Shown: positions 37,321 through 62,762 of the stretch, piece by piece
Numbering within the stretch: position 1 is the first letter of the stretch
Layout of the letters: every line of letters begins with the position of its first letter
Assembly (NCBI GenBank): GCA_002862205.1
Contig: PKCN01000249.1
Span: 1 to 64,000, forward strand
Source of the DNA: Planctomycetaceae bacterium
Lineage (GTDB): Bacteria; Planctomycetota; Planctomycetia; Pirellulales; Pirellulaceae
Reading direction: 5' to 3'
DNA length: 64,000 bases
Translations under genes and position numbers: made by a program
The notes under the pieces: generated by a model
What the model was told of the DNA's origin: nothing
The model's input: the letters and a program-made list of their open reading frames with translations, nothing else
Database searches by the model: none

Positions 37321-37586
37321 TTGGATCCATACGTGTGTCCGGCGTCCTGCTCCCTGGCAGTTCATTTTGAGAACGGGCAGGATTTTTTTGAGCGATCCTG
37401 CTGTGTTCCAAACGGTCAGCGTTTGTCATCTTACTAGCCCCCAAAACATAGCGGGGAACCGACTCGTTCTCCGATTGTGCCAACATCCGTGGCCATCGAC
37501 TGGGACAGCTCATGAAAACTGCCGGTTTCTGTGTGCATGAAAGGGTTTCCTCAGCTAATATGCGTTTTTCGAAAACGGTTTAATTG

Positions 37587-45180: not shown

Positions 45181-48100
45181 TACTGTTACATCCCTACATG
45201 CTGTTGTTTGCGTTGGTAGCATTCATTCCCTGGTTTGGTCCTTGGAAGGGCCCGCGCGCGACACAGAATTTGTTGCGTTCGCTTGTGTTCGTTGCAATCT
45301 CGGTGGCCATGGCCATGCCGCACCTACCATCTGGACAGACGACACCATGCAAAGTACTGATCATCGACCGTAGCCCTAGCATTTCGCAGGCTTCACGAGC
45401 ATTGGCTCTCTCGCAACTGGCAGAGTTTGCTCAAGAGCCCGACAGCCATCTGGTCACCTTTGGTGCTCCGTTGCAGTCTGCAGCGTTGTCTGGATTTTCA
45501 TCCGTAACGGCAATTCAGGACCACCCCTCGAGGGGAACTTCGCCACTCTCCGCGGCCATTGCCCGTGCTCAGACACTAATTCCAAGAGGGACTGGTGGAA
45601 GCGTGACGATAGCCAGTGACTCGCTTGCAACGCGTCCCGACGACAATCGAGCCATCGCTGCGTTGCGAGAACAGGAAATTCCCGTGCATTGGGTTCAGTT
45701 GGAAACGGTCCCGAGAACCACAACCCCGGTAGCAGTCAGTTGGTCAACGCCACTTCGCAAAGGTGCAAATTCGCGGATTGATGTACGTCTTGTTTCCACG
45801 ACAACAGCAACATCTGGCACTTTGATTCTGAGGGCAGGGGAAACCGAATTGACGCGTGCAAATTTCAGCGCTGCTGCTGAACAAACAATTCAGCTGAGTT
45901 TTGAACCGGACGAGTCAGGTTTTGTTGATGCGGTGGTTGTCGCTCAAAATTCAGACGGCAGCGAGAACGCACTTGCTGCTGTCCTGCCGATTATGCGTCC
46001 CCATCAGTTGTTGTATCTCGGTGATCGACAGACTGGCGGTAACGAAAAGTTAAGCGATATGCTGGGGCCAAGCTTCGATGTCGTGACCGTGGACCTCAGT
46101 GATACTCGTGGACTGCGGGACGCACTGAAACGCTGCGACCTTGTATTGCTGGATGATCAGCCTGCGGAGAACGTATCATCCCGGAATGAGGAAAGCATTG
46201 TTGATGCGGTGCGGGATGAAGGACTCGGCCTGGTGATGAGCGGTGGTCGTGCATCCTTTGGGGGTGGAGGCTGGCATGACCGTCCAATTGAAACGCTATT
46301 GCCCATCGAGCTTGTACAAAAGGAAGAGAAAAGAGACCCTTCGACTTCTCTGGTGATTGTGATTGATACGTCTGGCTCCATGAGTGGTGTGCGAGTGCAA
46401 CTCGCCAAAGAGGTTTCGCGATTGGCAATGAAGCGGTTGCTGCCACACGACAAAGTTGGAATCGTCGAGTTCTATGGTGCGAAACGTTGGGCTGCTCCTC
46501 TTCAACCAGCATCCAACGCGATTGAATTGCAACGGGCACTCAACCGCATGGACGCGGGCGGGGGAACCGTCATTCTGCCTGCATTGGAAGAAGCGTTTTA
46601 TGGGCTTCAGAATGTCGATACACGTTACAAACACGTGCTCGTGCTCACCGACGGAGGAGTCGAGTCAGGCGATTTTGAATCGTTGATGAGGCGGATGGCG
46701 AACGAAGGTATTAATGTATCGACCGTACTTGCAGGTGGCGGGTATCACAGCGAATTCCTCGTCAACATCGCGAACTGGGGCAAGGGGCGTTTTTACAACG
46801 TACCCAACCGCTTTAATCTGCCAGAGATTCTGCTCAAACAACCCTCAACGACCAAGCTTCCTTCCTATCGGCCAGGGCAGCACATTGTTCAGGCTCGTGG
46901 CGGTCCGGGATGGTGGGGCGAGGTCGATACGAGCAGTTTGCCGCCGCTGGCAGGATACGTTGAATCCAAGCCACGCGAGGGTAGCGAAATATTATTGGAA
47001 ACGGTTGCCGAAAAGCACCCCATACTGGCTACCTGGCGTTATGGTCTGGGACGTGTCACAACACTCAGCACCGAACCCTTGGGCGAGGGTACCGAACCCT
47101 GGCAGAAGTGGTCTGATTATGGCAATGCGTTAGCGAGAATCCTGCAACGTAGCACGGGCGACATACGTGAACCCTTCGAATTTGAGTTTGAGTTTGACGG
47201 TGGGGACGTGCTGATCCATGCAATCCGTCAGCAACCACGGAACCTCACCGCAGAAAAGATCAATCCACTTGCAAGGCTGCACGACTCAAATACCGAGATC
47301 GAATTTGTGCGACGAAGCCCGGATCGGTATTTGGCGCGACTGCCAACCCCCGCGATTGGAGAAACGATCAAACTGGAAACCTCGGCGACGAATACTCAGG
47401 ACCGTTGGAAGATCATGTCGGTAATGTCACCAGTGATGGCTGAGCATTTCGTTGACCCGGACAACGCCATGGATGCTACAACGCTTGTAACACTTACGGG
47501 AGGTCAGCGCATGTCACCCAAGTCAGTTTGGTCAAATGGATCCACTTCACAGCCAGAGGGTGACACACTGATCCCGTTGTCTCCTCTGTTGTACGGCATT
47601 GCCTTGCTGCTGTTTCTGGCCGAAATCATCTACCGCCGACTTCCTCGGCGGACGCAGGCAGTTGCAATGCAGGCCCCCTCAATCGTGCTGTTGTTCTGGT
47701 TGAGCTTGCAAGCGGCGACAGTCCACGCACAGGAACCCTTGAGTAACGAGGTGGCTGTAGCGGCAACCGAGGTTATTGACGTCGGGCTGCGAGACGGTGT
47801 CAGTGATACTGCAGTCGCTCAGCTTTTTGACCGTGCGATCCTGAAAGAGGGAAACCTGCAAAGCACGCTCGATTGGCTGTCGGAATCGACAGGGGATTTA
47901 GCCGACCCGCGGAACCGGATCATTGCTGAAATCGAAGTCAAGTTGGCAGCACGACGAGGCGATCTGCAACGCGCATCTGATCTGTTGAAGGATCTGCTTG
48001 AACAACAGCAAGTACTTGAGTCGCGGCTCGATTTGGTCCTGATTCAGGCAAAATTCCATGACGCCCTTGGTGAGACTGATGCCGCAAAAGAGCTGTACAC

Positions 48101-51100
48101 GAAACTCACTGTGTCAGAACTCGCAGAAGCCGATAGGCAGACGGTAAGCCTCCGCCTGGCGTTGATGGGCTTGTTAGGCGACGCACAGGCGAAACAGGGC
48201 AGCGATGCACAACCGTTAATCGATCTGGCGACAAAGTCGGACGATGTCGGTTTCAAAAATCGCGCAGCAAATGTCCTGGCCGTACAGAATCGACATGCCG
48301 ATGCCCTGAAATTGTTCACCATTACTGGATTGGGCACCCAGAAATTTCGAAGCGCCAGCCGCGTCACGGAGTGGGCCATCCGTGCGAAAGAGCGGGACAA
48401 AGCGATTGAGACTGCATGGCAGGCCGTTGAAACTGCGCAGTTACGGCGGGACCGCAATTACGCCCTAGCGTTACTTGTCGAAGCCTATCGCCTGAAGAAG
48501 CAGACAGCTGGAATTGAGACCTTGGTCGATGAATTCAAACGCCGGAATGATGCAGCTGAACCGATGACGGTGGAGATGCAGAGAGTGTGGATTGATCTGC
48601 TCCGCGAGTTGGGACGATACGACGACGCAATCGCACTGTTTCGGGAGAGTGCAAGTGCAGCGTCGACATTCACGGTTGAAATGCGACGTGAGTTGCTGGA
48701 ACTCGAGGGGGAAGCTGGCAATACGAAACGAATGATTTCAACTTACCGCGAGCTGATTGAAACGGAACCTGATGAACTCGCTTGGCGCGGTGGGCTCACC
48801 CAGATATTGCTCGAACGAGGTGATAACGAACAAGCAAAAGCATTATGGAGCGACTACGTTAACGAAACGGAACGTAGTACAGTGTTGATGAATGCCGCAC
48901 AGACTCTTGGTGAACTGGGTCTGGATCTGTTGGCTAAAAACACCGTTGAGCGAATGGTTAAACTGAGGGTCAATCATGGTCAAGCTTTGCTCTATTGGGC
49001 AGATTTGCAGCAACGCCGAGGCGATGTGGAGGGCGCGGAAGCCTCTTTGAATCGAGTGCAGGGGTTTGAGGATGTCGGAGACGATGTCAGGGCGGAACTG
49101 GCCAGTGCCTATGAGCGGATTGGCAGGCAGGACAAGGCGATTGAGGTCAACGAGGCAATTCGTGCTACGCGAAAAGTCGTTGCTGAGGATCTGGAAATGC
49201 GACTTGCCTGGTTGTACAGCGAAGTCGGCGACGAGGAGAAAGCGCTTGACCAATGGTTGGCTTTGTGGCGCAAAATAACCTCGATTCCACGTCGCAGGTA
49301 TGTCGAAGACCGCTTGATGACGGTGGCAAGCCGACTGGGAACCCTTGCAGACATAGCGATTGAAATTGAGGAAAAACTTGCCGATGGAACCGCCGATTCG
49401 CGTGAGGCCGGCCTACTGGTCCGTATCTACAGTCGAGTCAATGACTCGGTTGCTGCCACCGAAATCTCTGAAGAGTATATGGCACAAACCGGAAAAGACC
49501 TGGTGGACCAACTGCAGGAGAAAGGCCGGATCTACCAGATCTGCAACGACTATTGGAACTATGAGAAGGTCATTGAGGAGTTGATTGAGGTCGATCCTGA
49601 AGGGGAGACTGAGTACCTGAGACAACTGGCGCTGAGCATGTTGGAAAGAGGAAAGGCGCAGGATGCCCGCAATGTATTGATGAACTTGCGAACAGCTGAT
49701 GATGGCAAAGACTCAATTGGTGGTGAATTTGAAGCCGGTGTACTCTCACTGGTCGGGATGAAAGACGAAGCCGCAGACGCCTACCGGCAGGCCATTGCGA
49801 CGCACCCAGACCGAATTGAATCCTATCTGCTTTTGGCAAATCTGCTCAAGGAAAACAACCAGACCGAGCGTGCTGTCGGGATGTTTCAGTATCTCGCTGA
49901 AAATGCCCAACGCGATGATCTGTTTACCATTGCAATTGACGGCCTTCTGAACATGGAGGCCAAGGGTCGCAACATCCAGTGGGCACGTCGGATCACTCTC
50001 GAGCGACTCGCAGGTCGCGAGGACAAGAACTATCTCTATCAGCTATTGTCCGATCTCTCTGCCGAAGTGAACGATAAATCCGGACAGATTCGGGCCATGG
50101 AGAACTCATTGGCTGTATCTGGAACGAGGCGTTTATCCGTACTCCGCGAATGCATGGAACTCTCGTCCAGAATCCGCGGAGGAGTCTACTACTCTAGTTC
50201 ATCTCGTGGACCCTCGAATAAAGGGAACCTGCCGTTCTTTGCCTTTGGTCGAAGACTGATCGGACTGAATGAACTGATGCCCCCACAGGTATTCCTTGAT
50301 CTGGGCAAAGCGTTTCTCGATGACGGTGATACACAAAGCGCGGAACGCACGTTTGGCATGGCCAGGAATCTTGCCGATCCACGTAGTTATCAAAGGGAAG
50401 TTGCGGAGATCTTTGAGAAAGCGGGCAAAACCCCCGAAGCATTGGCGCGATATGATCGTCTACTGCGCACCAGCCCTTCAGATGTTCCGTTGATGGCTCG
50501 TGTCGCAAAGCTGAACGAAAGTGAAAAGAAAGATGCCATCGCGTTCAGGTTCTATCAGGGAGGTTTGAACCTACTATTGTCGCAAACACCGTTGACGACA
50601 AGAGAAGCAAGCAACACGGGACAACAGAGTTTTTGGAGCAACAATCGCGATGCGTATCAAACGTATTCGGATGAACTTTTGATGGGCATGTTGGTCACCG
50701 TCCCTGAAAAGGAACTTGATGCAATGGTTACCGACCAACGTGAGCGACTGTTCGCTGATCTCAAGCAAATTACTGAACTGCGCAAAGACCAAAAAGTTGC
50801 CAACACGCTATCCGAAGCGCCAAGGGTCGAAAAACGCTTCACACAATTGCAACGAATCTACCTCGCTCTTGCACAGATGGAATCGCTCGAAGCAGTCGAC
50901 GCGGTTCTGCTGAAACAATTCCCAGATGATGGAGCGTTATTCGCTAACATTACAACACTGCGTCTCAATGCCGGACGCCGTGACAGTCTGGCAAGGTTGA
51001 TGCAAAGTAACCTGATCTCGGCAACACAGCAGGCAACTATCAAAACCATGCTCGGCGAAACTGACGTGGACGTTGGAAACGCCACCCTCACCCCGACCCA

Positions 51101-54100
51101 GATGTGGAAAGCACTGTTGCCCGCATGGATCAAAGATGACCGTGAGTTAACACTTAAATTACTGAGACGGTTGAATCAACAGAGCGTGCGGGGCAGGGCG
51201 GGAACACCTTCTTACGTCGTGGTCAATGGCCGCGCCGTTCGCCAGACTCGTTCAAACCTGGGTGACGCTCGCACATGGATGCAGTTGGCGGTGACTCTGG
51301 GTGATGACAGCCTTGCACTCCAATTGGCAAGGGCCAACTGCGATCGTTTGACATACCAAAACCAGCAATCTTTCTATCAGATGTGTCGGGAGATACTCCC
51401 CGAGACACGCTTCTCCGAGTTAGTACGATACGCGACCAATCAGCAAAGTCAGAAACCGGAAAGGCTGGCTAATTATCTCTGGTTGCTGGCGGAGATGAAA
51501 GAATATGTGTCCGACTTGCAACCAAGTGACGGCGATTTGCTTGGATTGATCCAAAATGGCACCCTGCGTCTTGGTTACTCATTTCCCTTTCCCGTTGCGA
51601 TGCAGGTCTTTCCTGAATCGATTCGCGCGGATGCATTTGCCGAGACCATGGAATCCGTCACCCCGAAAATTCTGCCCCAAGAGCTGATCCGGGTTCCATT
51701 CAACTATGACAAACCCATTGATGAGGCAACGCAGAAAGTGGTTTTGGCTGCTTTTGCCGAAGGAATTGATGCCGCCTTGCAGGACAATTACTTGCGCTAT
51801 TGCTCGTACTATATGCCAAGAACTGGCACTGTTATCAAACTCAAGGAAAATCAGACGCTTGCAGTCAAAATGCTTGATCTCTTGACAGCAGACAAGGTGC
51901 AGAAAAGAGAGCCGAATATTTCAAAGATGGCTCAACTTGTCAAAGCGATGGTTTTATATCAATCCGGTGAGAAGAATGAAGGAATCAAACTTGCGCTCAA
52001 GGCAGGGTCCCCATTCGAAACTGTCTCTGATAGCTATCTCAGGATGACCCGCACGTGGGTCTACAATCAATTCCTCAGTGGGGATGATACACAGATGTTT
52101 CTCGATGCGTTGCCTGGCAAGCAAAACGGGAAAAAACTTTCAGTCGAAGATCTGGACAAGCGATTTGCCTTGCTGCAGCGGGTGCGGGCAACTGCTGCAC
52201 TGAACATGTTGTATGCACAGGCCGCAGAAATGTATCCGAACGAGTCCAAATACAAAAGAGCGAGGTCGACATCGACGGCCAAACCCGAAAACGTTTTCAA
52301 GGATATCACGCTGCAAGAAAAACGCATTCAGGAATTGCAGGGGAAGAACGTGAACGGTCCGCAGAATGCAAACCAGAAAAGCCAGGATGCAATCAGGTCC
52401 CGATTGGCTGCATTGTGGAACTCCGTTGACCATCGCGTGAACGCCATGAAGTACTGGACAGTGGTGGATGACCATCAACGACAAGCATCAGAAGCAGCGA
52501 AAAAGCAGAAAAATAATGCTGATGCTGCGAAGAGCAACCAAAAAGCTGCCGAGCGAGTGGTTAAGCCCAAAACTACACCCAGTCAGTCCAACAAGGCGAC
52601 CGCCTCTAGCGACGAGACCGAGAAAAAATACGCGAAGGGTCTGTTGGGTGTCAAAGCAGCACTTGACGCTGGTGATGAATCGGGTGTGTTACGGACTTTG
52701 CGAACTGTGTGGCGAACATTGCCTCCAGCTGTCTCGAGCCCGTATGGCTCGAGAGTTGTGGTACGGCCGTTGAGCGTTTCGTGGCCTACTTCCAAAGCCC
52801 CTAAGAAACCCAAAAACCTCCCAACAATACAAAAGAATGGGACGCGTGTAACCAATTCTGACTCGGCTCGACGTCAGAAACGCGGTGGGCTGTCGACGTT
52901 CGTCCCTCCCGCACGCGTGGCCGCAACTCCGCGTCCCAAGGCGTGGGATGTCCTTGCGGAGCATCCCTATGTATTGCCTGAGATGCATCGCATCGTACGT
53001 GCGAGCTTTCTAGCACCAGCAAATGCCCAAGCCGTTTCACTTGGTTTACTCAAGGCTGAGCGACTTGCGAACGGTGACGAGGTGGTTCTTGCAGGCTTGG
53101 TCAAAAAACTTCAGCAGGGTCAACTAACCGCGCCTGTGTTGGATGGATTTTTTGAGATCGTTCGTGAACGCCCTGAGCTGATTAATGACAGCAACAAGTG
53201 GGTGCTCGACAATTTAATGGACCAACTGGGAATTAAGAATGGTGATCAGGCCAGATTGCTTGCACCTCTTTATGCGCGAACCGGTGACCTCAACACGGCC
53301 TCGGCATTGTTTCGCGTGAGTGCATTCTTTCCATCAAAGACGGGAAGCGGTTTCGCTCGACTGATTGATCAAGCTCAACCCTTTTTTCAAGGCGCTGATC
53401 TGCTTGTACTCGCTGAGGCAATGTTTGAAACGGCATACAGCAGAAAAATGGCACTTCCCACAGTACTTGAACTGCGTCGCGACACGTTACCCGTGGCTGC
53501 AGCTGCGGAAGTAACCCGCAAGGATTTTCCAAGTATCCGTCTCATCCATGATGCGTACGACGTCAACACACTGATTGCTGGCACCAGTATTTATGCAGGT
53601 AGCGGCAACCATCAGGCAGCAATTGATTTTCTGTATACGCTTCTCAAACAACACGGAAAGCCGCTCGCTCCGCTCACAACCAGTGCGTCCCAGTATTACG
53701 TCAATCGCGGCAGCAAGCGCCCATGGTTGTTGACGCGAACCAATCTCTTGGATCTGTTCTCGGTTTCATCCTCTGCATCAACGCAGCAAAAAGATACCTG
53801 GTGGCGTGCTGCCGCTACCGCGGTTGCCACACTACGTGATGATGAAACGGTCAGCCGAGAAATTATTTGCGAGGCGCTTTTGACAATTGCGTATTGGCAA
53901 ACACAGGGAGAATTCACTGAGGCTGGCAAGATCACACTTTCAATGGTTGATGACGAATTGCTCCAAGACGCAAAGAAGCTGGAACCGCTGGCTGTGGACC
54001 TGTATCGTGAGGCTGGATTGATTGGACGCTCATTTGAACTGCAACGCCGGATGCAGCAAGAAGGAAATCTATCGTACACTCGCTTTGGAGAATTCGTCCG

Positions 54101-54446
54101 TGTTTGCGCCGGCCGTGAGGGAGCGGACAGCGGCAAGAAACTATTCAATGAGCTTGTAAAATTGAGTTTGGACGATGCTTTACTGTCGGCTGGAAAAGAG
54201 ATTGCAGCAGATGACACAGAATTCCTTGGTACGATCGAGGCCTTGGAAAAAGAGAAAAAGGCGGCCGAGCAAGCGTATCAGAAACGTGCAGCATCCGCGG
54301 CTGCAAGAAATACGCCGAAAGTGTCCCAGGCGTCCCGCACTGGGGCTTCCCAGGTTCGGGCTACCGGGAAAGGTGTCGCCCTGCCCCTGTCTGCTCCTCT
54401 GAAACTGAGAGCACTGCCACTGAAGCGAGTCTTGAAGAAGCCCTGA
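45177..54446 (+). CDS. Giant VWA + TPR fusion protein (~3090 aa)
   Basis: N-terminal TMs; MIDAS-containing LVIVIDTSGSMSGVRVQLAKE; VLVLTDGGVESGDF; glutamine-amidotransferase-like stretch before it; then >2000 aa of helical repeats. Confidence 0.92.
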   Translation: MILLHPYMLLFALVAFIPWFGPWKGPRATQNLLRSLVFVAISVAMAMPHLPSGQTTPCKVLIIDRSPSISQASRALALSQLAEFAQEPDSHLVTFGAPLQSAALSGFSSVTAIQDHPSRGTSPLSAAIARAQTLIPRGTGGSVTIASDSLATRPDDNRAIAALREQEIPVHWVQLETVPRTTTPVAVSWSTPLRKGANSRIDVRLVSTTTATSGTLILRAGETELTRANFSAAAEQTIQLSFEPDESGFVDAVVVAQNSDGSENALAAVLPIMRPHQLLYLGDRQTGGNEKLSDMLGPSFDVVTVDLSDTRGLRDALKRCDLVLLDDQPAENVSSRNEESIVDAVRDEGLGLVMSGGRASFGGGGWHDRPIETLLPIELVQKEEKRDPSTSLVIVIDTSGSMSGVRVQLAKEVSRLAMKRLLPHDKVGIVEFYGAKRWAAPLQPASNAIELQRALNRMDAGGGTVILPALEEAFYGLQNVDTRYKHVLVLTDGGVESGDFESLMRRMANEGINVSTVLAGGGYHSEFLVNIANWGKGRFYNVPNRFNLPEILLKQPSTTKLPSYRPGQHIVQARGGPGWWGEVDTSSLPPLAGYVESKPREGSEILLETVAEKHPILATWRYGLGRVTTLSTEPLGEGTEPWQKWSDYGNALARILQRSTGDIREPFEFEFEFDGGDVLIHAIRQQPRNLTAEKINPLARLHDSNTEIEFVRRSPDRYLARLPTPAIGETIKLETSATNTQDRWKIMSVMSPVMAEHFVDPDNAMDATTLVTLTGGQRMSPKSVWSNGSTSQPEGDTLIPLSPLLYGIALLLFLAEIIYRRLPRRTQAVAMQAPSIVLLFWLSLQAATVHAQEPLSNEVAVAATEVIDVGLRDGVSDTAVAQLFDRAILKEGNLQSTLDWLSESTGDLADPRNRIIAEIEVKLAARRGDLQRASDLLKDLLEQQQVLESRLDLVLIQAKFHDALGETDAAKELYTKLTVSELAEADRQTVSLRLALMGLLGDAQAKQGSDAQPLIDLATKSDDVGFKNRAANVLAVQNRHADALKLFTITGLGTQKFRSASRVTEWAIRAKERDKAIETAWQAVETAQLRRDRNYALALLVEAYRLKKQTAGIETLVDEFKRRNDAAEPMTVEMQRVWIDLLRELGRYDDAIALFRESASAASTFTVEMRRELLELEGEAGNTKRMISTYRELIETEPDELAWRGGLTQILLERGDNEQAKALWSDYVNETERSTVLMNAAQTLGELGLDLLAKNTVERMVKLRVNHGQALLYWADLQQRRGDVEGAEASLNRVQGFEDVGDDVRAELASAYERIGRQDKAIEVNEAIRATRKVVAEDLEMRLAWLYSEVGDEEKALDQWLALWRKITSIPRRRYVEDRLMTVASRLGTLADIAIEIEEKLADGTADSREAGLLVRIYSRVNDSVAATEISEEYMAQTGKDLVDQLQEKGRIYQICNDYWNYEKVIEELIEVDPEGETEYLRQLALSMLERGKAQDARNVLMNLRTADDGKDSIGGEFEAGVLSLVGMKDEAADAYRQAIATHPDRIESYLLLANLLKENNQTERAVGMFQYLAENAQRDDLFTIAIDGLLNMEAKGRNIQWARRITLERLAGREDKNYLYQLLSDLSAEVNDKSGQIRAMENSLAVSGTRRLSVLRECMELSSRIRGGVYYSSSSRGPSNKGNLPFFAFGRRLIGLNELMPPQVFLDLGKAFLDDGDTQSAERTFGMARNLADPRSYQREVAEIFEKAGKTPEALARYDRLLRTSPSDVPLMARVAKLNESEKKDAIAFRFYQGGLNLLLSQTPLTTREASNTGQQSFWSNNRDAYQTYSDELLMGMLVTVPEKELDAMVTDQRERLFADLKQITELRKDQKVANTLSEAPRVEKRFTQLQRIYLALAQMESLEAVDAVLLKQFPDDGALFANITTLRLNAGRRDSLARLMQSNLISATQQATIKTMLGETDVDVGNATLTPTQMWKALLPAWIKDDRELTLKLLRRLNQQSVRGRAGTPSYVVVNGRAVRQTRSNLGDARTWMQLAVTLGDDSLALQLARANCDRLTYQNQQSFYQMCREILPETRFSELVRYATNQQSQKPERLANYLWLLAEMKEYVSDLQPSDGDLLGLIQNGTLRLGYSFPFPVAMQVFPESIRADAFAETMESVTPKILPQELIRVPFNYDKPIDEATQKVVLAAFAEGIDAALQDNYLRYCSYYMPRTGTVIKLKENQTLAVKMLDLLTADKVQKREPNISKMAQLVKAMVLYQSGEKNEGIKLALKAGSPFETVSDSYLRMTRTWVYNQFLSGDDTQMFLDALPGKQNGKKLSVEDLDKRFALLQRVRATAALNMLYAQAAEMYPNESKYKRARSTSTAKPENVFKDITLQEKRIQELQGKNVNGPQNANQKSQDAIRSRLAALWNSVDHRVNAMKYWTVVDDHQRQASEAAKKQKNNADAAKSNQKAAERVVKPKTTPSQSNKATASSDETEKKYAKGLLGVKAALDAGDESGVLRTLRTVWRTLPPAVSSPYGSRVVVRPLSVSWPTSKAPKKPKNLPTIQKNGTRVTNSDSARRQKRGGLSTFVPPARVAATPRPKAWDVLAEHPYVLPEMHRIVRASFLAPANAQAVSLGLLKAERLANGDEVVLAGLVKKLQQGQLTAPVLDGFFEIVRERPELINDSNKWVLDNLMDQLGIKNGDQARLLAPLYARTGDLNTASALFRVSAFFPSKTGSGFARLIDQAQPFFQGADLLVLAEAMFETAYSRKMALPTVLELRRDTLPVAAAAEVTRKDFPSIRLIHDAYDVNTLIAGTSIYAGSGNHQAAIDFLYTLLKQHGKPLAPLTTSASQYYVNRGSKRPWLLTRTNLLDLFSVSSSASTQQKDTWWRAAATAVATLRDDETVSREIICEALLTIAYWQTQGEFTEAGKITLSMVDDELLQDAKKLEPLAVDLYREAGLIGRSFELQRRMQQEGNLSYTRFGEFVRVCAGREGADSGKKLFNELVKLSLDDALLSAGKEIAADDTEFLGTIEALEKEKKAAEQAYQKRAASAAARNTPKVSQASRTGASQVRATGKGVALPLSAPLKLRALPLKRVLKKP

Positions 54447-54515: not shown

Positions 54516-55889
54516 CTAACGCTGGGAACGGGATGCAGCTTCCCAGTCTTTCATCAACTTCAAAAGCGTGCGAGTCAACTCGGGTTTGCTGCTGGAAAGA
54601 TCATGCTCTTCTTCAGGATCGCTGGACAGGTCAAAGACGGACTCGATGGGTTGCCCTTCACCGGTCTTGGTGACGAGCTTCTGGTTGCCATCACGCACGG
54701 CTTTCCATACACGATCCCCCCGTTTCCCTCGCCAATACAAAGTGCGCCGGACATCTGGTTTGCGTTCTACGATGTGATTGATGATGTCGTATCCATCCAA
54801 TTGCACGTCGGCTCGTTCGCCATCAGCTGCGTTGAATTTTCGATTTACATTGGATGCACCAGCAACATCTAGAATCGATTTCGTCAGGTCGAACGTGATG
54901 CAAACTTGATCACTGGTTTGTCCCGCAGGGATTCTTCCCGGCCATCTGATGATCAAGGGAACTCGGATTCCACCTTCGTAGGTCATGCTTTTACTGCCAC
55001 GCAACGGTCCCATGTTCGCCGCGTTCGCAAAGCCGCCGTTGTCAGATACAAAAATAACGACCGTGTTGTTTCGTTGACCGCTGTTGTCGACAGCATCCAC
55101 GATCTTCCCAACGCTCCGGTCAAGGGACTCTATCATTGCAATGTAAGCGTCCGCATCCAGTTCCATCCAGTTTTCGCTGGTCACCTTCTTGCTCGCGTCG
55201 CTCGGGCCTTGGAATGGAAAGTGAGGTGACTCATGTGAGATAAACAGCAAATAAGGCGTTTGCGTGTTTTCGATAAAATCAACCGATTCTGCAGTAATCA
55301 GATCAGTCATATACCCTTCCCGATAAACGGGCAAATCATTGGCGAATAGCACATGCAAGTCGCTGGTTTCACGATGATTAAAGTAATGCACGTTGCCACC
55401 CAAATAGCCAAAAAACTCATTCCAGCCATGCTCGATTGGATTGAATCTGGGTTCGTATCCCAAATGCCACTTGCCGAACACCGCAGACCGGTATCCTTGG
55501 GCATTCACCATTGCCGGCAGCACGGTCTGCTCTGCCGGTAACCCCAGTTCGTGCTTTTTCGCGAGTCGCACTGCATCGTCGTAGCGGCCGACATTGCCAG
55601 TTCCGATTGCACATTCCAGTCCACCGGCATATTGCTGATACCTTCCCGTCAGGAATGCAGTACGAGTGGGACTGCACTCAGGCCCATTTGCATAGTGTTG
55701 CGTGAAACGTACTCCATCCTTTGCAAGCTGATCGATATGGGGCGTTTTAACCTGGGGATGCCCGTAGCAGCCCAAGTCACCGTATCCAAGATCGTCAGCC
55801 ATGATCAAAACAATGTTCGGTTTCGCTCCATTGGCATGGCTGGCTAAGAATATCAGGGCCATGAATGCAAAAAAGAAACGTGGTCCCAT
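54516..55889 (-). CDS. Secreted sulfatase
   Basis: PNIVLIMADDLGYGDLGCYG; CSPTR motif; GKWHLGY; VSDNGG; start at MGPRFFF. Confidence 0.94.
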   Translation of the reverse strand: MGPRFFFAFMALIFLASHANGAKPNIVLIMADDLGYGDLGCYGHPQVKTPHIDQLAKDGVRFTQHYANGPECSPTRTAFLTGRYQQYAGGLECAIGTGNVGRYDDAVRLAKKHELGLPAEQTVLPAMVNAQGYRSAVFGKWHLGYEPRFNPIEHGWNEFFGYLGGNVHYFNHRETSDLHVLFANDLPVYREGYMTDLITAESVDFIENTQTPYLLFISHESPHFPFQGPSDASKKVTSENWMELDADAYIAMIESLDRSVGKIVDAVDNSGQRNNTVVIFVSDNGGFANAANMGPLRGSKSMTYEGGIRVPLIIRWPGRIPAGQTSDQVCITFDLTKSILDVAGASNVNRKFNAADGERADVQLDGYDIINHIVERKPDVRRTLYWRGKRGDRVWKAVRDGNQKLVTKTGEGQPIESVFDLSSDPEEEHDLSSSKPELTRTLLKLMKDWEAASRSQR

Positions 55890-56112
55890 CGGCTCGTCTT
55901 TCGTGGTTTGGGTAAAATCAACAAACATCGGACCGTCAGGATGACGACGTCCAATATCACTCAAAGTTGGATTGCGTTAGTGGTCTGCAAATGGGTCGAT
56001 CGGGGAGCCAGATATCCGGAAGCGAACAAGTACCATGCAACTCGAGGACAATTCCACCAAGCGGGTCATGGTGGACTCTCTAAACCCGAGCATTGAATGG
56101 CACAAGCAACTG

Positions 56113-57918
56113 CTAGGAAGGCGGGTGAATTGGTTCCCAGTCCTCAATGGTGACCCAGCCTGATCCAACCGCTTCGACGGTGATCCGAAGATACCTTGCG
56201 GTAGCAGAGAACGAGAGTCTCTCATCTTGGATTTCGGACGATTTGTTGGATTCATGCACCTTGGTCCACTTCACGCCATCGTTTGAAACACTCACGTGGT
56301 AGCGGATATTTGTACGATTCTTAAAACGAATATTCGCACCCGACAATGATTTTTCGATTCCAAAGTCAAGTTGTATCCACTGTGGCGTGGTTCCATTTGA
56401 TGCGGCCCAGCGGGTCGCCTTGTCGCCGTCAACCGAATGATGCGGGTAGTTTCCCGATTGATGGGACGACGCCGAAATCGTTCCTTTCGGCGTCGACATC
56501 GGTTGACTGGGACGGGCTTGGGGTTTGCGACGTCGGTCAGGATCATAATCAGGGTTCGGCGTCGGCATTTGAGCCGCAACCGATGTTCTCCAGTTTTGGA
56601 GCCGTTTTGCCAGATCATCTGCGAGCTCACGCTGCTCACTCGCTAGATTACTTCGTTCAGCGGGATCCGTTTCAAGATCGTACAGCTCCAAGTTCCCCCC
56701 TTCATAAAACTCGATCAGCTTCCAATTACCTTTTCGGATCGCGCCATAAGGAGTGGTGCGATGGTAGTGTGGGTAGTGCCAATACAATTCGTCTCGCGGC
56801 CAGACGGCTTTGGAATTCTTCAACAGGGGTACAAGACTAAGTCCATCCACGTGTTGCATGGGTAGAGGTGCGCTCCCGGACATCTCCAACAGAGTTGGGA
56901 AAAAATCATTCCCGATGATAGGTACGTCGCACTCTGAGCCCGGGGCCGTGATCCCGGGCCAGTGGATCATCGTTGCGACGCGGGTGCCACCCTCATAGGC
57001 CAACGCTTTTGCCCCTCGCAAACCCGCCGATGCGAGCTCAGCGGTGCCTCCATTATCCGAGGTAAACACAATGATGGTATTCTCAGCGAGCCCCAATTCC
57101 TGCAGCTTGGCCCTCACTCGCCCCACACTTCGGTCGAGCAACTCAGTCATCGCCGCAAATGCGGGATTCACGCGCTGAGTGTAGGGTTTTGCCAACGACT
57201 CGGCTTTCTGCCGGTATTTCTGAACCAGCTTCGGCGGCGCCATGATCGGACCGTGAACTGTGTAGTAGGAGAAATAGAGAAAGAATGGTTGTTCTTGATT
57301 TGCATCGATAAATTCAATCGCCTCATCGGTGAGTGCGTCGGTCAGGAATTCGCCAGCACGTCCATCCTCCAGATTGGGCATTCCAAATGGCGAAAAGTAT
57401 TTCCCTGGACCTTTGGGTTGTCCCCACTCACGCCCCGCTATGTTTTGGTCAAAACCATGCGATGTTGGGTAATGTTGCTCGAAATCATCAGCGCCTATCG
57501 GCATCAAATGCCACTTGCCGACAAATTGGCTCTGATAGCCCTCGGTCTTTAACGCCTCTGGTAACGTTGTTTCCGACAAATTCATCCGCATGTTCCAATC
57601 GGGAATGTTGAGTGGAGCATTCCCTCGTCTGTGCCCAGCGATCCAGTCGGTCAGGTTGGTTCTGCCAGGGTATTTGCCCAATAGAATGGCCGCTCTACTT
57701 GGGGAGCACACCGTACACGCGGAGTAGGCCTGCGTAAATTTGACGCCATCGGCGCAGAGGCGATCAATATTTGGCGTTTCATGGAAGGTAGACCCAAAGC
57801 ACCCAACGTCCCCCAGCCCAAGATCATCAACAAGAAAAAATACAATGTTTGGCTTTTCGCTGCCACGCGCGGACGCGGCCACCAAGAGACAAAATAGTGT
57901 TATCAACGCAGGACGCAT
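56113..57918 (-). CDS. Secreted sulfatase with C-terminal F5/8 type C (discoidin-like) domain
   Basis: NIVFFLVDDLGLGDVGCFG; CSPSR; GKWHL; TSDNGG; C-terminal HHSVDGDKATRWAASNGTTPQWIQLDFG ... ARYLRITVEAVG. Confidence 0.94.
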   Translation of the reverse strand: MRPALITLFCLLVAASARGSEKPNIVFFLVDDLGLGDVGCFGSTFHETPNIDRLCADGVKFTQAYSACTVCSPSRAAILLGKYPGRTNLTDWIAGHRRGNAPLNIPDWNMRMNLSETTLPEALKTEGYQSQFVGKWHLMPIGADDFEQHYPTSHGFDQNIAGREWGQPKGPGKYFSPFGMPNLEDGRAGEFLTDALTDEAIEFIDANQEQPFFLYFSYYTVHGPIMAPPKLVQKYRQKAESLAKPYTQRVNPAFAAMTELLDRSVGRVRAKLQELGLAENTIIVFTSDNGGTAELASAGLRGAKALAYEGGTRVATMIHWPGITAPGSECDVPIIGNDFFPTLLEMSGSAPLPMQHVDGLSLVPLLKNSKAVWPRDELYWHYPHYHRTTPYGAIRKGNWKLIEFYEGGNLELYDLETDPAERSNLASEQRELADDLAKRLQNWRTSVAAQMPTPNPDYDPDRRRKPQARPSQPMSTPKGTISASSHQSGNYPHHSVDGDKATRWAASNGTTPQWIQLDFGIEKSLSGANIRFKNRTNIRYHVSVSNDGVKWTKVHESNKSSEIQDERLSFSATARYLRITVEAVGSGWVTIEDWEPIHPPS

Positions 57919-58080
57919 GGCAATCATGTACGCAAGTTGGGTGAGACAAAGGCGGCAGCGGCCGCTGGTAGGTGGATGAATCGATAATTGTACCACGTGC
58001 TTGCCAAACTGTATTGGAAAGCATTTCCATTCTCAAACGGAACTGCTTATCGAGCAAGCTTGTGCCGTTGGCGATACCAT

Positions 58081-58110
58081 AAAAAAAGAACGCCCCGCTG
58101 CTCACAGGGC
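58081..58110 (-). terminator. Probable Rho-independent terminator for the 58.1-61.6 kb gene pair
   Basis: Minus strand GCCCTG-TGAGCAG-CGGGGC (one G-U pair) then GTTCTTTTTTT; 15 bp after the stop at 58125. Confidence 0.7.
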
Positions 58111-58124
58111 AATGTAGTTCAAAC

Positions 58125-59237
58125 TCACTCGCCAACGACTGCGAAAATACTTTTTGCCAGTTTACGCGTGAGCACGCGAATTTCTGACTCGAGTCGCTGC
58201 GAGATGTTTTCTACCTCATGGTTCGCCGCACTCCCCATCGATGAACTCGAAATGCTTAACATACGGACAGTCAAATCTCGTGATACGCGTTCGGATCGCC
58301 AACGTTTCTGCAGAATCATCGGTTTGAATTTTTTGGTGTCGCCAAAGAACACTCGCCTATTATTCGTATTCACCCGATCAACGGAAGTCGACGAGTACTC
58401 TGGATTGAGATCTTTCAGAGTCCCTTTTCCTTTGAGTTGAATCTTGCATTCGAGCGGCAGCTTTCGAGTATCAAATGAATGGTCGATCGCAGTGGTCAGG
58501 TTTTCGCACTGTAGCTTAGGTGACTGCTGTAATTGCGATTCCCTCGTTAGCGGTTGCAAGGCATCAAGACGGGTGTACAACCGCCTCAGTCGGCGCACAT
58601 CAAGATAGAATCCTTCATCAACGTTCAGCCCACAAGAATGTTTTCGTGCAAGGGATCTGAATGACATGTTTCTCGCAGTAAGAGTAATGATTCTGGTGAT
58701 CGCATCCTCCTCCGCTTCTAATTGAGCTGATAATTGTGCCAATTGGTTCGCGAGAGCCTGGATTGCATACCGATCACTCTCAAGCCTGTCTGACAGATTG
58801 TGATATTCGGTTTTGGCAGCTTCCCATTCTTTTTTGGCATTTATGAGTGAGTGTTGAACCGCGGCCCATTGAATCTGAGAAGTGTTCGATTTCCTTGCGC
58901 GTGCTTCTACGCTGGGTTGTTGATGCAATAAACGCAAAAACACCAGTCCGATACAGTGGATCAAGCTCGTGATGTCATCACACTTCTTACAATAGTTTCC
59001 CCAGCAATCAGCTTCCTTGACGACGGCATCTTTATACACCGTCTCCGCTGCTTTCAGACGTGCTCGTGTGACTCGAAGTCTGGATTCGTGCTGATGCTCG
59101 TAATTCAGGATTCGTTCCGCGATGCTGTTGCGTTTCGCTTCAAGCTTTCCCTTGATCCCGAGCAGCCCTCGTCGAGTACGAAGATGAGTGTGAATCTGGT
59201 GCGTGTAGTCACCAAAGTAATCCGCTAATCGATTCAT
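58125..59237 (-). CDS. Coiled-coil protein of unknown function
   Basis: Start MNRLADYFGDYTH at 59237 overlaps the upstream stop (ATGA); extended heptad-like regions. Confidence 0.75.
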   Translation of the reverse strand: MNRLADYFGDYTHQIHTHLRTRRGLLGIKGKLEAKRNSIAERILNYEHQHESRLRVTRARLKAAETVYKDAVVKEADCWGNYCKKCDDITSLIHCIGLVFLRLLHQQPSVEARARKSNTSQIQWAAVQHSLINAKKEWEAAKTEYHNLSDRLESDRYAIQALANQLAQLSAQLEAEEDAITRIITLTARNMSFRSLARKHSCGLNVDEGFYLDVRRLRRLYTRLDALQPLTRESQLQQSPKLQCENLTTAIDHSFDTRKLPLECKIQLKGKGTLKDLNPEYSSTSVDRVNTNNRRVFFGDTKKFKPMILQKRWRSERVSRDLTVRMLSISSSSMGSAANHEVENISQRLESEIRVLTRKLAKSIFAVVGE

Positions 59238-61555
59238 CGCATCACTCCGAAATCTTGTTCCAGTTCGACGCGAATAAAAGAAACGCAATCGTTCAAAGAG
59301 CTGCTGGCGGCGGCAATTTCCGCCGTACGGATGGCGTGCAGTGCCTGCAAACTGCCAATTCGTGTGACGGATTTGTTCAGACCTTCAATCGACTTACGTA
59401 GTTTCTCTCCCCCTTGCCATTCAATCTGCTCAATTTGGTAGTTCACGCTCAGGTTGGCTTGGCCTTGGGCCTGCCCGATCAAGCGGTGAGTTGTACCCGT
59501 CGATGTGGATGCGGAACGGAACGCAACAGAACAGTTAACCTGTGTTTTCAACTTCCGATCCCGGGCACGATGAACAAATCCATCGGTAACAGCGTTGGCT
59601 ACCTCATTGGTTGACTTCGCAAACTGAACGACATCCTCATTTAGGGGCGATTCCAGCTCATGCATTTCACCTACCAGTAATTTCTGTTCAGCTTGATGCT
59701 GTTGAATCTCCTGACAGCATTGCCGCAACACAACGCCGCAGCTGGATTGATTCACCAAAGTATCAATGCGACGATTCAATCCATTTTGCGATGCCAAATT
59801 GATCACATTCAAGATCGCCTCATTGATCTGGATGCGGACGAGACTCAGTTCATGATTTGCTTTGGTAGACGCATCACTTGCGGACAACAGTTCCTGATCA
59901 ACGTCCTTGATTGGTGTGCTGACACTTCTTTCTTGTTCGTGTGCCGCGGCCAGTTTCTGCTTCGACTCCTCGACGCTTGATCCAACTTCACGCATCTTCG
60001 AATTCAGGTTGTTCTCAAGTGTCGTAAGGGCCTTCAGACGCATCGGCCAGAGCGTATTTGCAAGCGATGAAAGAAACCCCGCATTGCTGCGCCTTGTGAT
60101 GGATAGCGTTGCCGCGAGTGAACTCATCTCTTCCTGAAGATCAGTGTATGCATTGTCGTGCTCTTTTTGACTCTTGCGAGCAGTTTCAAGGTCATCCGCA
60201 AGGTCGGCATACACCAGGTCGTGTCGCAGGACAGCTTTCTCCAAGGCAATGTCAGCGTCCATGACATTGGCTTGCCGCTTACTTAATTCGTCATACAGAT
60301 TCGCCACGTCATTCAGATCTTCTCCAAAAAATGCGGCAAACCGCTTTGCGTTATCCCATTGAAAGTGTGCAGGGGGGGTTGGTAAGACCAGCGTTTCCCA
60401 AGCCACGGGATCCAGTTGTTGTTCGTATTTGGCAAGCTCAGGTATTGCCTGAAATGCGTTCTTGGCAGAATCTGTTTGAACAAGTTCGGCAAGCAGGACT
60501 TCCTCCTCACTCGTGGGCTCTCTTTGGATGCCTGCGCCGAACTCGTTTGATTCCAAATCGGATTCACTGCGTGCCCGTGGGGCTGGTTCGTCTGAGTTAT
60601 CCGATTGAGCTGAAACAGTTTCATGATTTGTATTATTAACATTTGACGCTGTAAATGAGGACTCATCACTGGCGACACGTTCCTCGCGTATGATTGAAGA
60701 TGAATCGTCGAAAGAACTTTTCTTGTCAGACGGGGAGTTCCCCAAACTTGCTTGCGATTCTTTTTCGGCGACGGATTTTGCATTTGTCTCACCAACCCCT
60801 GTACTGCTGGCCTCAGACCGGGTTCCGCCTTGCCGTGGTTGTTTTGGCTCATTTTCAGTGCGAATGGTCGCGTCTTGCTGGTGGTTTTTAACCGGGTGCG
60901 TTTGCTCCGACCGCGGTTCTCCTTGTGATTGATCAACGCCTGAGGGTTTGGCATCACCGGTGTTGTGTTCAGCCTCTAGCGTATCCAGGGCGGATTGAGC
61001 GGTTGGCGACTTGTTACTGTCGCTCTGAGGATCGGTGGATGCCTGGTTGGCGACAGCGGAATATTCATGCAGCACGGTGGCGTCAACCTCAATGGGTTCA
61101 ACGCCCTCTCTCTCCAGCAGTTCAATCGCTGACTCCGCAGCATGTCGTACTGCGTAACCTTTGTCCTCAAGCAGTTTCTTCAACGCAGCAATGGCGCGGC
61201 CATCGTTACGGTTCGCCAGTTCACTCGCGGCATCCCGACGGATATTGTCCGTGTCGTCGCTCAGACAATTAATCAGCGCGAGTACCGCTGCATCCGAGCG
61301 GTGCGTTCCGATGGCCTTTATGACATCTCGCCGAAGATAGCGATCATCGACGTTCAATAATTGAATCAGAGTCTTCAACGTCAACTCATCGTCCAGCTCG
61401 CCAAGTGCAGCTATCGCGTTCCGCCGTTCGTATGAAGTGGATGCATCGCCCAAAGCGACAGCAATCAGATTTTGATGATCAGCCAAATGTGAGTTTCCTT
61501 GATTGGGTGCCCGCAGGATCGCTCCGTTGTCCAGTCTAATACTGGGCTGGAGCAC
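59234..61555 (-). CDS. HEAT-repeat protein with disordered linker and C-terminal coiled coil
   Basis: ERRNAIAALGELDDELTLKTLIQLLNVDDRYLRRDVIKAIGTHRSDAAVLALINCLSDDTDNIRRDAASELANRNDGRAIAALKKLLEDKGYAVRHAAESAIELL; long S/T/E/Q-rich linker; coiled-coil C-terminal half. Confidence 0.85.
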   Translation of the reverse strand: MLQPSIRLDNGAILRAPNQGNSHLADHQNLIAVALGDASTSYERRNAIAALGELDDELTLKTLIQLLNVDDRYLRRDVIKAIGTHRSDAAVLALINCLSDDTDNIRRDAASELANRNDGRAIAALKKLLEDKGYAVRHAAESAIELLEREGVEPIEVDATVLHEYSAVANQASTDPQSDSNKSPTAQSALDTLEAEHNTGDAKPSGVDQSQGEPRSEQTHPVKNHQQDATIRTENEPKQPRQGGTRSEASSTGVGETNAKSVAEKESQASLGNSPSDKKSSFDDSSSIIREERVASDESSFTASNVNNTNHETVSAQSDNSDEPAPRARSESDLESNEFGAGIQREPTSEEEVLLAELVQTDSAKNAFQAIPELAKYEQQLDPVAWETLVLPTPPAHFQWDNAKRFAAFFGEDLNDVANLYDELSKRQANVMDADIALEKAVLRHDLVYADLADDLETARKSQKEHDNAYTDLQEEMSSLAATLSITRRSNAGFLSSLANTLWPMRLKALTTLENNLNSKMREVGSSVEESKQKLAAAHEQERSVSTPIKDVDQELLSASDASTKANHELSLVRIQINEAILNVINLASQNGLNRRIDTLVNQSSCGVVLRQCCQEIQQHQAEQKLLVGEMHELESPLNEDVVQFAKSTNEVANAVTDGFVHRARDRKLKTQVNCSVAFRSASTSTGTTHRLIGQAQGQANLSVNYQIEQIEWQGGEKLRKSIEGLNKSVTRIGSLQALHAIRTAEIAAASSSLNDCVSFIRVELEQDFGVMR

Positions 61556-61834
61556 GTCTATTATTTCCTTTCCAAAAGGGCAGTTGCGTTGATCGTAAGT
61601 GGGGCTAAAAGTCCGATTCTGGCCATTTTTCCGGTACCCGGGTTAGATTCAATCCCTGAACACACGCTCATTGAGCTCTATCAGTACGGCCCGTAATCCA
61701 TTGACTCATGGCGCAAGGAATCTGGATTTCCAGTTTTTTCGAACCCGCTTGCCTTTCCCTTGACCGTTGGGCCTTACTGCTCAATCGCTGGCTGGAGTCA
61801 TGATGGTGGTGATTTGATGTTGGAACCGATTGGC

Positions 61835-61930
61835 TGAACTGTGCCCCTGAATTGTGCCCCTGAACTGTGCCCCTGAACTGTGCCCCTGAACTGTGCCCCT
61901 CCTTGTGACGTGCACCTGTGACGTGCCCCT
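61835..61930. repeat. 13-bp tandem repeat TGAACTGTGCCCC (5 units) followed by a related 13-bp pair GTGACGTGCMCCT
   Basis: Units 61835, 61848 (one substitution), 61861, 61874, 61887; pair at 61905-61917 and 61918-61930. Confidence 0.92.
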
Positions 61931-62129
61931 AGCCGTGTTGCGGTGACATGCCACAGGATGTGTTGCAGTGATCTGGATGCACGTCCGCCAATGGAGATCC
62001 TTGGCCATCCATCTACTGCCCCTATCGGGGGCGATCTGACAGGGGTTCTGTCGAACGGCCAGCCCGATTAAAACGGGGCTCTTCTGACGCTACTTCCAGA
62101 CCGTTTCTGGCGGAGCTGTTTTCAGAGTG

Positions 62130-62762
62130 ATGACGGAAAGAATCTTCGTGGGTTTCCAACAAATCGAAATGCCTGATCACTTTGGACTCGATTCGACTGA
62201 ACCCGAGGCTGATCGCCTGATTGGGGTGGCTAATGAACAGATCGAGCGGTTCATGTTGTCAGACCAGGAGGTGATTGAGAACTTCGTCACCTGTGATTTC
62301 CATCTGACGCAGTGTGCTCTTCAGTGGATTCGTGACAACCATTTACTTACGGGTGAGCGGTTTTGCGAACTTGGTAGTGGGTACGGGGTCGTGGCAATGT
62401 TGGCTGCCAGAATGGGGATGGAGTCCATTGGCATCGAAATTGAACAGGTACTGGTTGACGAAGCCAACGCATTGGCAGCTCAACTCAGCAACGATGCAGC
62501 TTTTCATTGTGGAAGTTTCATTCCGCGTGAAACACTTGAAAATCTGGACATGGATCGCGAAATTCGAAATGTAACCATCGAAGAAGATGATGTTTATCGT
62601 GAGATTGGGCTCGCAATGAACGATTTTGACCTGTTCTTTGCCTTTCCGTGGCCTGGTGAGCAGGTGTTCTTTGAACGGGTCGTTGATAAGTGGGCTGCGT
62701 CTGGCGCGATGCTACTAACTTATCGTGGCCGTGACGGAATGCAGTTGCAGCGTAAGGATTAA
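62130..62762 (+). CDS. SAM-dependent methyltransferase-like protein
   Basis: FCELGSGYGVVAMLAARMGMESIGIEIEQVLVDEANALA motif I-like. Confidence 0.8.
   Translation: MTERIFVGFQQIEMPDHFGLDSTEPEADRLIGVANEQIERFMLSDQEVIENFVTCDFHLTQCALQWIRDNHLLTGERFCELGSGYGVVAMLAARMGMESIGIEIEQVLVDEANALAAQLSNDAAFHCGSFIPRETLENLDMDREIRNVTIEEDDVYREIGLAMNDFDLFFAFPWPGEQVFFERVVDKWAASGAMLLTYRGRDGMQLQRKD

What the first reader, a model, noticed from the sequence alone, without database searches (positions are those of the whole stretch)
58125..61555. Uncharacterised two-gene HEAT/coiled-coil module, possibly paralogous partners
Seen: ATGA overlap at 59234-59237 and a likely terminator just after the second gene. By-eye alignment shows shared blocks: AITRIITLTARNMSFRSLARKHSCGL vs AILNVINLASQNGLNRRIDTLVNQSSCGV, and AIDHSFDTRKLPLECKIQLKG vs AVTDGFVHRARDRKLKTQVNCSVAFR. 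The first protein adds an N-terminal HEAT array and a ~200 aa disordered linker. No known family recognised. Inference: a hetero-oligomeric coiled-coil complex with HEAT-mediated targeting.
Basis: partly seen in the sequence, partly recalled or inferred. Interest (0 to 1): 0.6.

Follow-up and report, generated by a model that had tools for sequence, protein, structure and literature searches.

The report
Paralogous HEAT/coiled-coil gene pair in planctomycetes
Two overlapping planctomycete genes of unknown function encode long rod-shaped proteins that arose from one ancestral gene by an ancient duplication and have stayed side by side ever since, which suggests the two proteins form one complex; no database tested knows either family.

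Summary
Gene H (59234-61555, minus, 773 aa) carries an N-terminal HEAT array, an acidic low-complexity linker of about 247 aa and a 376-aa C-terminal domain (CTD). Gene C (58125-59237, minus, 370 aa) starts inside H's stop codon (ATGA).

I then found two distant pairs, in another genus and in another family of the order. With these added, H-CTD and C align end to end over 353 columns (P 4.6e-11, probability 97%). Shuffles that keep helix layout and heptads give at most 44 against a real score of 81. Independent AlphaFold models show the same element order: long helical hairpin with hydrophobic apex, third helix, amphipathic beta-hairpin, fourth helix.

All ten loci have both genes, C starting at or just after H's stop. 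Seven of the eight bearers in the genus form one RpoB clade; the eighth could not be placed. No Pfam, NCBIfam, PHROGs, PADLOC, PDB or viral-structure match exists beyond HEAT and generic coiled coil.

Best reading: subunits of an obligate cytoplasmic hetero-oligomeric rod scaffold, with HEAT as a tethered client-binding arm. Paralogy is shown; complex formation and function are inferred.

The parts
59234..61555 (-). gene H: HEAT array + acidic linker + coiled-coil/beta-hairpin CTD, 773 aa (GTG start)
   Evidence: homologues in 8 same-genus genomes (the window's own included) plus G487 and G783
61118..61450 (-). HEAT repeat region of H (aa 36-146)
   Evidence: HEAT_2 E 6.1e-20, HEAT_PBS 1.6e-5; 60-65% identity to clade relatives
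60365..61105 (-). low-complexity acidic linker of H (aa 151-397)
   Evidence: net charge -26, few hydrophobics; fastest-diverging part, dN/dS 0.54-0.81
59237..60364 (-). C-terminal domain of H (H-CTD, 376 aa)
   Evidence: AlphaFold model pLDDT 86: H7-95, h97-105, H107-194, h198-206, H210-262, E263-282, E297-316, H319-372; alignments A1, A5
60044..60085 (-). hydrophobic apex of the H-CTD helical hairpin (FLSSLANTLWP)
   Evidence: among the most hydrophobic 18-residue windows of the protein in most relatives
59417..59578 (-). amphipathic beta-hairpin of H-CTD with invariant GxAxG and W316
   Evidence: beta-periodicity at the 97.5-99th percentile
58125..59237 (-). gene C: paralogue of H-CTD, 370 aa (ATG start)
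   Evidence: AlphaFold model pLDDT 75 with the same element order; profile match to H-CTD P 4.6e-11
58923..58970 (-). hydrophobic amphipathic apex helix of C (TSLIHCIGLVFLRLLH)
58299..58475 (-). amphipathic beta-hairpin of C with invariant GxG
   Evidence: low pLDDT in its loop
59234..59237 (-). ATGA overlap of H stop and C start
   Evidence: the same 4-nt overlap in all eight loci of the genus and in G487, 1-nt spacing in G783
61566..61573 (-). Shine-Dalgarno-like GGAAAGGA ahead of the GTG start of H
   Evidence: sequence read directly
58081..58111 (-). terminator-like stem-loop and T-run after C
   Evidence: number of such sites in the region is at chance level

Best explanation
H and C are the two subunits of one obligate, cytoplasmic hetero-oligomeric rod-like complex. 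Shown: their coiled-coil/beta-hairpin domains come from one ancestral gene duplicated before the split of at least two families of the order; the genes occur together in every locus found, with C starting at or just after H's stop; neither domain belongs to a known family. Inferred: translational coupling gives matched synthesis, and the two domains co-fold through their helices and amphipathic beta-hairpins into an elongated scaffold. The hydrophobic apex of each helical hairpin contacts a membrane or a further partner. The HEAT array, on a flexible acidic tether present only on H, is the arm that binds a client and brings it to the scaffold.
For: Paralogy: profile-profile P 4.6e-11, probability 97%, 353 of about 370 columns, end to end in register. 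Within-element heptad-preserving nulls reach at most 44 against 81 (z 10.8-12.3), reversed profiles 21-27. The best 12-column window lies on the structural path. Independent models share the same order of elements with boundaries within about 10 residues of each other, and both beta-hairpins are amphipathic at beta period in family means. Obligate pairing: both genes in all ten loci, with 4-nt overlap in nine and 1-nt spacing in one. Short overlaps are enriched among subunits of heteromers (PMC10666635). Stand-alone module: context differs completely in G487. Retention: the seven pair-bearing genomes with usable RpoB form one clade, 100/99 support; purifying selection with dN/dS 0.18-0.42 for the folded parts.
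Against: No interaction data and no multimer model. Apex hydrophobicity is moderate in several relatives, so membrane contact is weakly supported. No conserved partner genes across lineages point to a client or pathway. The C model is of middling confidence (pLDDT 75, below 50 in the hairpin loop).
Confidence: 0.55

Rival explanations
1. Bi-component pore-forming or membrane-disrupting module: two paralogous rods with a hydrophobic apex and a beta-tongue-like hairpin that insert into a membrane after a HEAT-sensed trigger, in the manner of ClyA/XaxAB-type alpha-pore-formers, here acting inside the cell.
For: Two structurally similar subunits in adjacent genes, long helices, hydrophobic apex and a beta-hairpin in each. 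XaxA and XaxB are also two structurally related coiled-coil subunits forming heterodimers (PMC6086661). Fast divergence and sparse distribution are typical of conflict genes.
Against: No Foldseek match to any such protein at E <= 0.001; alpha-pore-former chains appear only at E 0.3-0.4 among generic long-helix hits. The beta-hairpins are amphipathic, not uniformly hydrophobic. Kept in every sampled member of one clade, in a partly conserved chromosomal neighbourhood. PADLOC shows only HEAT and SMC-like coiled-coil noise.
Confidence: 0.12
2. The two proteins are unrelated coiled-coil proteins; the apparent similarity is heptad composition.
For: Single-sequence and genus-only profile comparisons are not significant; most other top-scoring windows are coiled-coil matches out of register.
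Against: With distant orthologues the alignment is end to end and covers the beta region; heptad- and layout-preserving nulls stay far below; the element maps coincide.
Confidence: 0.05
3. Separate homo-oligomers that merely share an operon: C is a HEAT-less isoform acting on its own, for example as a competitor or regulator of H.
For: The two folds are alike, so homotypic assembly of each is possible; no direct evidence of H-C contact.
Against: Strict co-occurrence and preserved overlap or immediate adjacency in all lineages, a pattern enriched for heteromers (PMC10666635); each subfamily keeps its own invariant residues.
Confidence: 0.2

Closest known systems
HEAT_2 / PBS-lyase HEAT-like repeat proteins (PF13646, PF03130)
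   Same: The N-terminal 110 residues of H score far above the family cut-off (71.8 vs 27.7 bits).
   Different: Only a domain match; the linker, CTD and partner gene are not part of any HEAT family.
Heteromeric complexes of paralogous subunits encoded by overlapping genes (general kind, PMC10666635)
   Same: Adjacent, co-directed, 4-nt overlap, duplicated domain, strict co-occurrence.
   Different: No sequence or fold relation to any named example found; one subunit has a HEAT arm and a long linker.
ClyA/Hbl/XaxAB-type alpha-pore-forming toxins
   Same: Long helical rod, hydrophobic apex, beta-hairpin between helices, two related subunits (by resemblance only).
   Different: No significant fold match, amphipathic rather than hydrophobic hairpin, HEAT array and acidic tether on one subunit.
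SMC/MukB-like coiled coils (JetC, DUF3584)
   Same: Weak coiled-coil scores in PADLOC and Foldseek.
   Different: No ATPase heads or hinge in either protein; scores are of the level any coiled coil gives.

Membership tests
HEAT_2 domain family (PF13646) | profile score above the curated cut-off | tested here: met
   71.8 bits vs 27.7 for H; G487 73.3 and G783 100.6. Applies to aa 36-146 of H only.
Paralogous heteromer encoded by overlapping genes | common ancestry of the two subunits | tested here: met
Paralogous heteromer encoded by overlapping genes | conserved adjacency with overlap or near-zero spacing | tested here: met
   4-nt overlap in nine loci, +1 nt in G783
Paralogous heteromer encoded by overlapping genes | physical H-C complex | not testable with these tools
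   no multimer prediction or interaction data on hand
Alpha-pore-forming toxins (ClyA/XaxAB type) | fold match to a solved member | tested here: not met
   no PDB match with E <= 0.001; MakA and AhlB only at E 0.31-0.40
Alpha-pore-forming toxins (ClyA/XaxAB type) | strongly hydrophobic insertable head element | tested here: inconclusive
   apex mean hydrophobicity 0.52-0.98, highest in C; beta-hairpins amphipathic
SMC-like proteins | ABC-type ATPase head or hinge domain | tested here: not met
   none in Pfam, NCBIfam or PADLOC scans

The most novel reading that the evidence does not exclude
H and C form an intracellular two-component conflict system: the HEAT arm senses a trigger and two paralogous rods with hydrophobic apices and amphipathic beta-hairpins assemble on or in the membrane. 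This would be a new structural class of bacterial membrane-acting complex, explaining both the fast divergence and the sparse distribution.
Probability: 0.1. Interest if true: 0.75.

Novelty: new variant of a known kind. Interest (0 to 1): 0.42.

Why it matters
Two protein families without any database match are shown to be one duplicated family and given a testable quaternary hypothesis. The case also illustrates how fast-evolving coiled-coil pairs escape detection: a profile scan of the same taxonomic family with the C model missed a true distant pair that a search with the slower-evolving HEAT domain found. If the rods prove to be a membrane-associated scaffold, they would add a component to the poorly understood cell biology of planctomycetes.

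Tried and rejected
1) Direct BLASTP of H against C: nothing. 2) Genus-only profile comparison: not significant; its one global run that looked good (P 8e-5) was not reproducible with a slightly different input and is not used. 3) First column-score null with raw BLOSUM scores: uninformative because the free-end alignment collapsed to 12 columns. 4) Weak hits of the C profile outside the genus (E 0.005-0.8): eight inspected, all unrelated (V-type ATPase A subunit and others). 5) Other HEAT hits in the family: most of the loci inspected are plain HEAT proteins without a coiled-coil partner; the only exception among non-genus hits was G487. 6) Weak A3 hits in the order: five inspected are other proteins, mostly with coiled coils. 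7) Viral contigs and viral structures: no relative. 8) Context as a clue to function: sulfatases, methyltransferase-like and photolyase-related genes flank the pair only in one clade; in G487 the neighbours are entirely different, so no functional link is drawn.

Full report
What is there. The window lies in a planctomycete draft genome; a named record with a 92% identical C gene is a MAG deposited as Rhodopirellula sp. MED661. On the minus strand, gene H (59234-61555, 773 aa) is followed by gene C (58125-59237, 370 aa) with an ATGA overlap. H consists of a HEAT array (HEAT_2 E 6.1e-20), an acidic low-complexity linker of 247 aa and a 376-aa C-terminal domain (H-CTD). Apart from HEAT, neither protein matches Pfam, NCBIfam, PHROGs, PADLOC or PDB sequences beyond generic coiled-coil noise.

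Relatives. Within the genus (22 genomes) both genes occur in exactly the same 8 genomes. In the eight loci the pair sits in a partly conserved neighbourhood, with the 4-nt overlap in every one; in G020, C is split between two contig ends. In an RpoB tree the seven bearers with usable RpoB form one clade (100/99), and no non-bearer falls inside it; the G007 fragment was unusable. A search with the HEAT domain alone led to a distant pair in another genus of the family (G487, locus L135): H 609 aa, C 378 aa, again with ATGA overlap. The H-CTD profile matches it with E 6e-20 over 361 columns; the C profile matches end to end with 2.8e-4. Adding it to the profile found a third lineage in a different family of the order (G783, locus L174; E 9.1e-72), again a complete pair, with the two genes 1 nt apart. 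The C proteins of G487 and G783 match with E 1e-35. So the module is older than the genus and sparsely distributed. Absences are weakly tested: the C-profile scan of the family included G487 and missed its true C.

Paralogy of H-CTD and C. Genus-only profiles do not show it. With G487 the profiles match with P 2.1e-6, and with G783 P 4.6e-11, probability 97%, 353 columns, H 8-369 against C 3-365. As a control I rearranged the columns of C within secondary-structure elements: by heptad multiples (mean 26.6, maximum 40.1, n 80) or in shuffled 7-column blocks (mean 26.1, maximum 44.2, n 80). I also reversed C (20.9-26.9). The real score is 80.8. Circular permutations keep high scores because they preserve most of the local alignment; they serve as a positive control. 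Independently, AlphaFold models made from separate alignments give the same element order with nearly equal positions. H-CTD: helices 7-95, 97-105, 107-194, 198-206, 210-262, strands 263-282 and 297-316, helix 319-372, pLDDT 86. C: helices 2-49 and 51-87, 92-105, 110-190, 193-201, 208-236 and 240-252, strands within 255-274 and 294-313, helix 315-369, pLDDT 75. In column-score terms the single best 12-column window of the comparison is H9-20/C4-15, exactly on the path defined by these models, and windows close to that path are enriched about six-fold among the top 0.1%. The beta strands of both families are amphipathic at beta period (97.5-99.7th percentile). H keeps an invariant GxAxG and W316, C an invariant GxG. 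H resembles H and C resembles C across lineages, so the duplication predates the split of the two taxonomic families.

Selection and rate. The pair diverges much faster than its neighbours. C is 34% and H-CTD about 40% identical between the window and G008, where the adjacent sulfatase is 77% and RpoB 97%. Yet between close pairs the folded parts are under purifying selection (dN/dS: C 0.33-0.41, H-CTD 0.18-0.26, HEAT 0.42) and only the linker approaches neutrality (0.54-0.81). These are functional, fast-evolving genes.

Mechanism. Shown: duplication, pairing in all ten loci, lack of a known family, a predicted rod with a hydrophobic apex and a beta-hairpin in each subunit. Inferred: co-translational assembly of a hetero-oligomer. 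Translational coupling needs overlaps or very short gaps, and short overlaps are enriched among subunits of heteromers (PMC10666635); the paralogous domains offer a natural heterotypic interface; and the tethered HEAT array, found on H only, is most simply a client-binding arm. The apex of each helical hairpin is among the most hydrophobic stretches of its protein, so contact with a membrane or a third partner is plausible but untested. Foldseek finds no solved structure with E <= 0.001 for either model and no viral one for H-CTD, so no known fold can be named.

Rivals. A bi-component pore-former (as XaxAB, PMC6086661) has a similar ground plan, but the fold test is negative and the hairpin is amphipathic. 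I keep it at about 0.12. Unrelated coiled coils are disfavoured by the nulls. Independent homo-oligomers cannot be excluded.

Data caveat. The G005 copy is not fully independent. Its contig jumps from about 70% to about 95% DNA identity with the window across a stretch of 92 N's in and next to the sulfatase gene, which fits merged contigs or an introgressed tract. The HEAT part of that H lies on another contig of the same assembly (L173). G008 and G010 also share an unusually similar pair (dS 0.11-0.21) compared with RpoB (synonymous difference 0.46).

Noticed in passing
L020:9888-11835 (G005:C8), corresponds to window 56000-57950: 92 N's cluster where identity to the window rises from about 70% to about 95%: a merged (chimeric) contig or a recombination tract covering sulfatase, C and H.
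   Followed up: partly
L022:4600-10496 vs L023 (G010, G008): The H-C region has dS 0.11-0.21 while RpoB differs at 46% of synonymous sites and the adjacent photolyase-related gene has dS 0.84: possible exchange of the locus between species of the clade.
   Followed up: partly
window 62127-62762 and counterparts in G005, G008, G010 (L085, L089, L081): The divergent neighbour, a methyltransferase-like gene, contains in-frame stops in three genomes beside an intact H-C pair; the window copy has no Pfam match at 1e-5.
   Followed up: partly
window 61834-61900: 13-bp tandem repeat (CTGAACTGTGCCC, 5.2 copies) in the gap between H and the methyltransferase-like gene; found in no other genome among the fetched loci.
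   Followed up: yes
window 45147-54446: A 3,099-aa open frame with a von Willebrand A domain and many TPRs at the end of a run of co-directed genes starting at 37584.
   Followed up: no
window 54516-57996: Two sulfatase genes (the second with an F5/8 type C domain) downstream of C; the close second sulfatase is largely limited to the same genomes as the pair, with G017 lacking it at the cut-off used.
   Followed up: partly
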